NCBI GenBank assembly: GCA_036490475.1
Contig: DASXDT010000006.1
Span: 1,302,001 to 1,366,000, forward strand
Origin: Candidatus Tumulicola sp.
Lineage (GTDB): Bacteria > Vulcanimicrobiota > Vulcanimicrobiia > Vulcanimicrobiales > Vulcanimicrobiaceae
Reading direction: 5' to 3'
Length of the DNA: 64,000 bases
In this document: piece by piece, positions 52,646 to 53,349 of the stretch
Position numbering within the stretch: position 1 is the first letter of the stretch
Layout: the number at the start of each line of letters is the position of its first letter
Notes under the pieces: model-generated
What the model was told of the DNA's origin: nothing
Databases searched by the model: none
What the model saw: only the letters and a program-made list of their open reading frames with translations
Made by a program: the position numbers and the translations under genes

Positions 52646-53065
52646 TTAACTCGGTTCCCAAAGCAGACGCATAGCGCGAGCAGCTCCTCGCAGCGCTTTG
52701 TCGCGCGTCATCAATGGCCGTTTTGCGCGTTCCGCCAATTCAAGATAGGCTGCGTCGTAAGCGCTCAAGCCGAAACGTTCGGCTAACGCAAAGCCAGAAT
52801 TGAAGCTGAGGTTCGCTGCGGCGGAATCGACGATGAGATTCAGGCGATCGAGGTCACCGAGTCTTTCGTCAACGATGGCGCGCGTCATCCGCTTGCGGCG
52901 AAGCGCTTGGAGCAATGCGTTCTGCATCTCTAACCGGAACAGCGCCGGTACGAGTGCGCCGGAAGCCGCGACAACCTCGGCCATTGCGAGAGACAAATCG
53001 TCCCGCTCGTCTTCAAAAAACCACGTTAGCGCTGCTGAGGCATCGAGAACGGCCTGGCCGCTAAT
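52646..53065 (-). CDS. VapC-like PIN-domain toxin, apparent ATT start
   Basis: About 139 residues if translation starts at ATT (53063-53065), which overlaps the antitoxin stop and has GAGGGA 6 nt upstream. The PIN ribonuclease acidic residues are present: AVLDASAALTWFFED (Asp), ALFRLEMQNALL (Glu), and SAYDAAYLELAERA and MTRD (Asp). The frame has no ATG, GTG or TTG between an upstream TAA (about 53109) and the first catalytic Asp; the first TTG (52996) would remove it. Either ATT is the start, kept weak by coupling to the antitoxin, or a frameshift joins the genes. Length and motifs otherwise fit an active toxin. Confidence 0.75.
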   Translation of the reverse strand: MSGQAVLDASAALTWFFEDERDDLSLAMAEVVAASGALVPALFRLEMQNALLQALRRKRMTRAIVDERLGDLDRLNLIVDSAAANLSFNSGFALAERFGLSAYDAAYLELAERAKRPLMTRDKALRGAARAMRLLWEPS

Positions 53066-53294
53066 GGCGGCGTCCCTCTTCGACCAAAGACTTGGTTGGG
53101 ATGCCCTTTAACTTCGCATGCGAGGAGAGAATGCGATCCATAGCGCCGCGCGCGTCGGCGTTGCGGGATGGCATGGGCACCATTTGAGCGACGGGCTCAC
53201 CGTTTCGAGTAATAACAATCGTGTGACCGTTGCGCGCTTCGTCAACCAATGCCGAGAAATGTGTCTTTGCCTCGAAAATGCCGACGGTCTTCAT
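53061..53294 (-). CDS. Phd/YefM-type antitoxin
   Basis: 77 residues with the Phd/YefM start MKTVGIFEAKTHFSALVDEA followed by GHTIVITRNGEPVAQMVPM, the DNA-binding half of these antitoxins. The C-terminal 30 residues (DRILSSHAKLKGIPTKSL) should wrap the toxin. Phd-type antitoxins repress their own operon. The stop overlaps the apparent ATT start of the toxin. A TATAAT box ends 8 nt before the ATG, and the -35 region lies in four tandem TGACTAG repeats. Confidence 0.88.
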   Translation of the reverse strand: MKTVGIFEAKTHFSALVDEARNGHTIVITRNGEPVAQMVPMPSRNADARGAMDRILSSHAKLKGIPTKSLVEEGRRH

Positions 53295-53302
53295 GCAAGC
53301 CG

Positions 53303-53308
53303 ATTATA
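53303..53308 (-). promoter_or_regulatory. -10 box of the antitoxin-toxin operon
   Basis: A perfect TATAAT on the minus strand, 8 nt before the ATG at 53294. A -35-like TAGTCA lies 17 nt upstream, inside the tandem repeats at 53318-53349. The mRNA would be almost leaderless. Confidence 0.65.
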
Positions 53309-53317
53309 TCATGGGTT

Positions 53318-53349
53318 TGACTAGTTGACTAGATGACTAGATGACTAGA
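53318..53349. repeat. four tandem 8-bp repeats (TGACTAG[A/T]) over the toxin-antitoxin promoter
   Basis: TGACTAGT, TGACTAGA, TGACTAGA and TGACTAGA follow each other without spacing. They cover the -35 region of the antitoxin promoter. Phd-like repressors bind repeated short sites, so this is a good candidate for the autoregulatory operator. CTAG is otherwise rare in bacterial DNA. Confidence 0.6.

What the first reader, a model, noticed from the sequence alone, without database searches (positions are those of the whole stretch)
52646..53065. PIN toxin without ATG, GTG or TTG: apparent ATT start coupled to the antitoxin
Seen: from the in-frame TAA (about 53109) to the first catalytic Asp the codons contain no usual start, while ATT overlaps the antitoxin stop and has GAGGGA 6 nt before it. 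The first TTG would delete the Asp. Established: ATT starts are very rare (infC) and limit expression. Inference: a built-in way to keep toxin low relative to antitoxin.
Basis: partly seen in the sequence, partly recalled or inferred. Interest (0 to 1): 0.62.

Follow-up and report, generated by a model that had tools for sequence, protein, structure and literature searches.

The report
Toxin gene with conserved ATT start
A toxin gene in a little-studied bacterium seems to begin with the very rare start signal ATT, which overlaps the end of its antidote gene and is kept in its closest relatives, so the cell may make less toxin than antidote by design.

Summary
On the minus strand a Phd/YefM antitoxin (53294-53061) is followed by an intact PIN toxin frame. 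Between the in-frame TAA (53110-53108) and the catalytic Asp there is no ATG, GTG or TTG; ATT (53065-53063) shares one T with the antitoxin's TAG. Searching the phylum (Eremiobacterota) gave six homologous loci in five further genomes. All seven have ATT at exactly this codon. No canonical start is shared by the seven, and four have none upstream of codon -3. The frame is under purifying selection and its model is a confident PIN fold. Sequencing error or a dead gene is unlikely; an ATT start is the best reading. infC, the classic IF3-controlled gene, appears to begin with ATA, ATT or ATC in every genome here whose infC N-terminus could be read, so near-cognate initiation probably works in this lineage. 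Low toxin relative to antitoxin, and control by IF3, are inferences. The nearest precedent in working principle is Streptomyces sigR-rsrA (GTC start, repressed by IF3). Weak points: the ATT is partly imposed by the antitoxin's last codon and stop, two of seven loci have a poor Shine-Dalgarno, and there is no expression evidence.

The parts
53061..53294 (-). Phd/YefM-type antitoxin gene (77 aa), ATG start, ends CAT TAG
   Evidence: PF02604 E 2.6e-14; TIGR01552 phd_fam E 1.8e-8
52646..53065 (-). PIN-domain (VapC-like) toxin gene read from ATT, 139 codons plus TAA
   Evidence: PF01850 E 9.4e-7, over the gathering score; model pLDDT 94.4; Foldseek to 2fe1 and VapC structures
53063..53065 (-). ATT, inferred start codon, third base shared with the antitoxin's TAG
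   Evidence: same codon in 7 of 7 loci
53073..53078 (-). GAGGGA, Shine-Dalgarno-like, 7 nt before ATT, inside antitoxin codons
   Evidence: duplex with anti-SD -6.3 kcal/mol
53108..53110 (-). in-frame TAA that bounds the toxin frame upstream
53042..53044 (-). GAT, first catalytic Asp (D8 counted from ATT)
   Evidence: D8 invariant in 45 aligned sequences
52994..52996 (-). TTG, first canonical start codon in the frame; using it would remove strand 1 and D8
   Evidence: strand 1 is residues 5-7 in the model
53057..53071 (-). possible small hairpin GCCGC-CAUUA-GCGGC with the ATT in its loop
   Evidence: suggestive only
53303..53331 (-). promoter-like site TAGTCA-17-TATAAT; the antitoxin ATG begins 8 nt after the -10, so the antitoxin mRNA is probably leaderless
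   Evidence: (1 found, 0.5 expected)
53318..53348 (-). four CTAGTCA copies at 8-nt spacing over the -35: possible operator for autoregulation
   Evidence: read by eye; function inferred

Best explanation
This is a chromosomal antitoxin-toxin operon (Phd/YefM antitoxin, PIN/VapC-like toxin) whose toxin is translated from ATT. Ribosomes that finish the antitoxin stop at TAG with the toxin's Shine-Dalgarno and ATT under them; a small fraction re-initiates with fMet-tRNA at AUU. Because AUU is a poor start, discriminated against by IF3, toxin output stays below antitoxin output and depends on antitoxin translation. Shown: sequence, frame, overlap, presence of ATT in seven homologous loci, selection on the protein. 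Inferred: that ATT is the initiation codon in the cell, the coupling, the low output and the role of IF3.
For: ATT at codon -7 in 7 of 7 loci from six genomes of four genera, while toxin identity to the window falls to 53-58% and third codon positions are near saturation. No ATG/GTG/TTG position is shared by the seven: TTG at -13 in three, GTG at -2 in three, none in the window. dN well below dS wherever dS could be computed (e.g. 0.10/0.52 and 0.20/1.41). The antitoxin's last residue changes (His, Tyr, Asp) while its third base stays T; the only other antitoxin column with variable residue and invariant third base is its own start codon. A start seven codons before the Asp is ordinary: 8 of 129 homologues with one canonical codon in -9..-3 have it at -7. 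Anti-SD pairing before ATT is -6.3 to -11.8 kcal/mol in 5 of 7, better than before the alternative codons; a CCTCCT 16S end was found in 2 of 7 genomes searched (G025, which carries an ATT-group toxin, and G009), not in the window's own. infC starts: ATA 16, ATT 8, ATC 4 of 28 loci whose N-terminus could be read; ATA in all six genomes that carry the ATT toxin.
Against: No expression or proteome data. NAT followed by a TAR stop gives ATT automatically, so only the A and T of the last antitoxin codon are free to report selection. Among 16 other two-fold C/T codon columns 3 are invariant too, though all three are C. L010 and L117 have a weak SD (-2.5). The seven loci are related, not independent, and grouping of the window's copy with the other six has support 61 only, in a quick tree. 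No IF3 effect was tested.
Confidence: 0.7

Rival explanations
1. ATT is the start, but only as a tolerated leftover: the frame offset and antitoxin ending happened to leave ATT when an ancestral GTG near codon -5 was lost, and the low initiation has no selected role.
For: A neighbouring clade has GTG at -5. ATT is imposed by any NAT-TAR ending. Invariance of one codon column is not rare: 3 of 16.
Against: The T is kept in seven loci although C is commoner in NAY codons of these genes (27 C to 20 T in antitoxins, 72 to 40 in toxins), and no canonical start has come to be shared instead.
Confidence: 0.3
2. The start differs between members: GTG at codon -2 (L009, L030, L118), TTG at -13 (L008, L010, L117), and the window's copy is silent or nearly so.
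For: These codons exist.
Against: Anti-SD pairing before these places is weaker (-5.1 to +0.8 kcal/mol) than before ATT in 5 of 7 loci. GTG at -2 would cut strand 1 of the PIN fold (residues 5-7), and all 147 loci other than L006, L009, L030 and L118 have a canonical codon at -3 or further upstream. The window's toxin has all conserved acidic residues, and dN is far below dS in pairs that include it.
Confidence: 0.1
3. A +1 frameshift at the end of the antitoxin makes an antitoxin-toxin fusion, as in prfB, and there is no toxin start.
For: The toxin frame is +1 of the antitoxin and a Shine-Dalgarno-like stretch lies upstream of the stop, as in prfB (recalled).
Against: The codon before the stop is CAT, TAT or GAT; by ordinary pairing rules (recalled) their tRNAs would pair badly with AUU after slipping, and the codon changes between members. 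No CTT-TGA-like site.
Confidence: 0.05
4. Assembly error or pseudogene: a base error hides a normal start, or the toxin is dead.
For: Mostly draft genomes; a decayed copy of this toxin exists elsewhere (L172, last 33 codons only).
Against: Seven loci in six separate assemblies agree, one of them also held as a named GenBank record (PLWS01000008.1). Open frame, conserved catalytic residues, dN below dS.
Confidence: 0.02

Closest known systems
Streptomyces sigR-rsrA operon (GTC start of sigR, repressed by IF3; PMC5472188, passages read)
   Same: One member of an antagonist pair encoded in one operon carries a near-cognate start, conserved across species, which keeps it below its inhibitor
   Different: Sigma and anti-sigma factor, not toxin and antitoxin; GTC not ATT; the inhibitor is the second gene there and the first here; shown by experiment there, not here
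infC of E. coli (ATT) and other bacteria
   Same: Near-cognate AT-H start; by homology position also in Eremiobacterota infC (ATA/ATT/ATC)
   Different: Autoregulation of IF3, with no antagonist partner gene
VapBC / Phd-PIN type II toxin-antitoxin operons
   Same: Antitoxin first, PIN toxin second, short overlap, conserved acidic residues
   Different: In the homologues examined the toxin normally starts with ATG, GTG or TTG, often as NTGA over the antitoxin stop; here ATTA with another frame offset
kis-kid (parD) of plasmid R1, translational coupling (PMC3920265, passages read)
   Same: Toxin translation tied to antitoxin translation
   Different: The passage seen does not mention a near-cognate start

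Membership tests
Type II toxin-antitoxin system of the VapC (PIN) kind | PIN domain with conserved acidic catalytic residues | tested here: met
   PF01850 over cut-off; D8, D104, E109, D122 invariant and E46 nearly so in 45 sequences; PIN folds are the best Foldseek matches
Type II toxin-antitoxin system of the VapC (PIN) kind | adjacent antitoxin gene upstream | tested here: met
   Phd/YefM antitoxin in the window and a homologous one beside all seven members
Type II toxin-antitoxin system of the VapC (PIN) kind | RNase activity, growth arrest on expression, neutralisation by the antitoxin | not testable with these tools
   needs experiment
Type II toxin-antitoxin system of the VapC (PIN) kind | toxin frame opened by ATG, GTG or TTG (usual, not strictly defining) | tested here: not met
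   no such codon between TAA 53110 and the Asp
Genes with an IF3-controlled near-cognate start (infC, sigR kind) | near-cognate start codon conserved across relatives | tested here: met
   ATT in 7 of 7 loci of the subclade; its use as start is inferred
Genes with an IF3-controlled near-cognate start (infC, sigR kind) | good ribosome-binding site before that codon | tested here: inconclusive
   5 of 7 clear, L010 and L117 weak
Genes with an IF3-controlled near-cognate start (infC, sigR kind) | output falls with more IF3 and rises in IF3 fidelity mutants | not testable with these tools
   needs experiment

The most novel reading that the evidence does not exclude
The operon belongs to an IF3-governed set together with infC: both cistrons start in IF3-sensitive ways (a leaderless antitoxin mRNA and an AUU toxin start), so the level of free IF3, that is the state of ribosome supply, sets toxin output and perhaps the toxin-antitoxin balance.
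Probability: 0.22. Interest if true: 0.78.

Novelty: new variant of a known kind. Interest (0 to 1): 0.58.

Why it matters
How type II operons make more antitoxin than toxin from one mRNA is a standing question. A conserved ATT start would be a one-codon answer that is simple to test, and would link a toxin to IF3, as sigR is linked in Streptomyces. It also shows how such toxins can be missed or truncated by gene finders, which assume ATG, GTG or TTG. I found no paper on a toxin-antitoxin gene with an ATT/AUU start in searches of the held library; that library lacks most subscription journals.

Tried and rejected
Sequence error and pseudogene: rejected on seven agreeing loci and purifying selection. 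Upstream TTG (-13) and downstream GTG (-2) as common starts: rejected because neither is shared. RNA structure: over 121 nt the region folds no better than shuffles (z 0.11). In 30-nt windows ATT sits in an apical loop in 7 of 7, but 63-81% of controls with replaced codons 2-5 also put it there, and the observed stability is matched by 0-26% of controls depending on the locus; kept as a hint only. Viral contigs: 35 pattern matches, none a relative. Plasmids: 89 records, all under 60% identity; their starts were not examined. A first 16S-tail pattern found nothing in 6 genomes; a shorter one matched 2 of 7. A survey of further PIN genes by PF01850 (34 hits put to the script, 5 without a recognised Asp motif) showed 7 without a canonical codon in -10..-3; several of these are longer proteins with the domain inside, so no rate was drawn from it. 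Promoter hexamers were chosen by best score with ties to the nearest, which favours sites close to the start, and the script mis-set the antitoxin start of L009; the reading of leaderless antitoxin mRNAs rests mainly on the window (6/6) and L008 (5/6).

Full report
What is there. The window's minus strand holds a 77-aa Phd/YefM antitoxin (53294-53061) and, overlapping it, the frame of a PIN toxin (52646-53065). I read every codon between the in-frame TAA (53110-53108) and the Asp: no ATG, GTG or TTG, one ATT. Canonical calling gives only a 116-aa ORF from TTG 52996, which lacks D8 and the first strand of the fold. GAGGGA stands 7 nt before ATT. The genome has six PF01850 hits and this is one of them.

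Relatives. Searches with the toxin matched 23 of 60 relatives' genomes, 49 of 99 of the family and 55 of 149 of the phylum (these sets overlap). One scan of genome contigs found 258 relatives and kept 80; two of the 80 are titled Eremiobacterota, and one of these (L037) is the same sequence as L008 from G025. After removing duplicates, 151 loci had the catalytic Asp located, 73 from genome searches and 78 from genome contigs; 11 more were dropped because the script found no D-x-S/G/T/N motif. Five of the 11 I read by hand; the other six are partial or weak matches and were not used.

The ATT group. Seven loci (window copy L006; L008; L118; L009 and L030 in one genome; L010; L117) have ATT at codon -7, the antitoxin stop TAA or TAG at nucleotide -19, and an antitoxin ending RRY, RRH or RRD. 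The canonical codons that remain are scattered: TTG at -13 in L008, L010, L117; GTG at -2 in L009, L030, L118; none in the window. Four of the 151 loci have no canonical codon upstream of -3, and all four are of this group (L006, L009, L118, L030). A neighbouring clade (L011, L119, L039, L122, L138) has GTG at -5 and ends its antitoxin with TAC or a serine codon before TAG. A quick tree needs one change for the ATT label; support is 61 with the window's copy and 93 for the other six.

Is ATT conserved for its own sake? In the antitoxin alignment 6 of 76 gap-free columns have an invariant third base; of 45 columns with variable residue only two do, the start codon and the last codon, the latter being H, Y, D, Y, Y, Y, Y all as NAT. 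Against this, of 16 other columns made wholly of two-fold C/T codons in both genes, 3 are invariant, all C. So this test alone is modest; the absence of any other shared start carries more weight.

Selection and fold. Pairwise dN is 0.02 to 0.44; dS is 0.12 to 5.1 or not computable. D8, D104, E109 and D122 are invariant, E46 nearly so, in 45 aligned sequences. The model has mean pLDDT 94.4, and Foldseek's best solved match is PAE0151 (2fe1), followed by PAE2754 and VapC toxins among others; sequence search gave 2fe1 only.

Initiation in this lineage. Of 29 infC loci from 28 genomes, 28 show the N-terminus. In all 28 the codon at the conserved place is ATA (16), ATT (8) or ATC (4); some have an in-frame canonical codon further upstream, at least eight have none at all. 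Six further genomes have ATA, so all six genomes with the ATT toxin have an ATA infC. The assignment rests on position and homology, not on experiment. E. coli infC has ATT and Streptomyces ATC (PMC5472188, passages). [quoted passage not shown]

How it most likely works. The antitoxin's start lies 8 nt after TATAAT in the window and 6 nt after TATGAT in L008, without a Shine-Dalgarno, so its message is probably leaderless. The toxin has a Shine-Dalgarno inside the antitoxin's last codons (-6.3 kcal/mol here; -6.4, -6.7, -11.8, -11.0 in four others; -2.5 in L010 and L117). Ribosomes that terminate at TAG are well placed to re-initiate at AUU at a low rate. Four CTAGTCA repeats over the -35 suggest autoregulation. 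IF3 disfavours near-cognate starts (PMC5472188) and, at raised levels, some leaderless messages (PMC9031893, passages). IF3 may therefore move both genes, which makes a simple effect of IF3 on the ratio uncertain.

Known or new. The parts are known: PIN toxin, Phd antitoxin, near-cognate start. A conserved ATT toxin start overlapping the antitoxin stop I did not find in print. A 2017 paper on differential toxin-antitoxin production names start codons only in its methods in the passages found (PMC5535158). sigR-rsrA is the closest in working principle. I call it a new variant of a known kind.

Noticed in passing
L181 (window's genome, contig C6 near 622480) and 33 other infC loci: infC in Eremiobacterota appears to begin with ATA in the window's family (ATC in one member, L187), ATC in a sister family and ATT in another family of the class: the presumed IF3 autoregulation signal varies within AT-H but is not ATG in any locus read.
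   Followed up: partly
window 53292-53348: The antitoxin ATG lies 8 nt after TATAAT without Shine-Dalgarno, and several relatives look alike (e.g. L008, L013, L015, L141): leaderless antitoxin messages may be common in these operons.
   Followed up: partly
L125 1480-1510 and L142: Two other PIN toxins seem to start with CTG as CTGA over the antitoxin stop: in the common NTGA arrangement the antitoxin's last wobble base decides whether the toxin start is ATG, GTG, TTG or CTG.
   Followed up: partly
L172 579-677 (G098): Only the last 33 codons of an ATT-group toxin remain (94% identical to L008): a decayed copy in the same genus.
   Followed up: no
window 53318-53348: Four CTAGTCA copies spaced by 8 nt overlap the -35; CTAGTCAACTAG stretches also precede the antitoxin in L008, L118, L010 and L117.
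   Followed up: no
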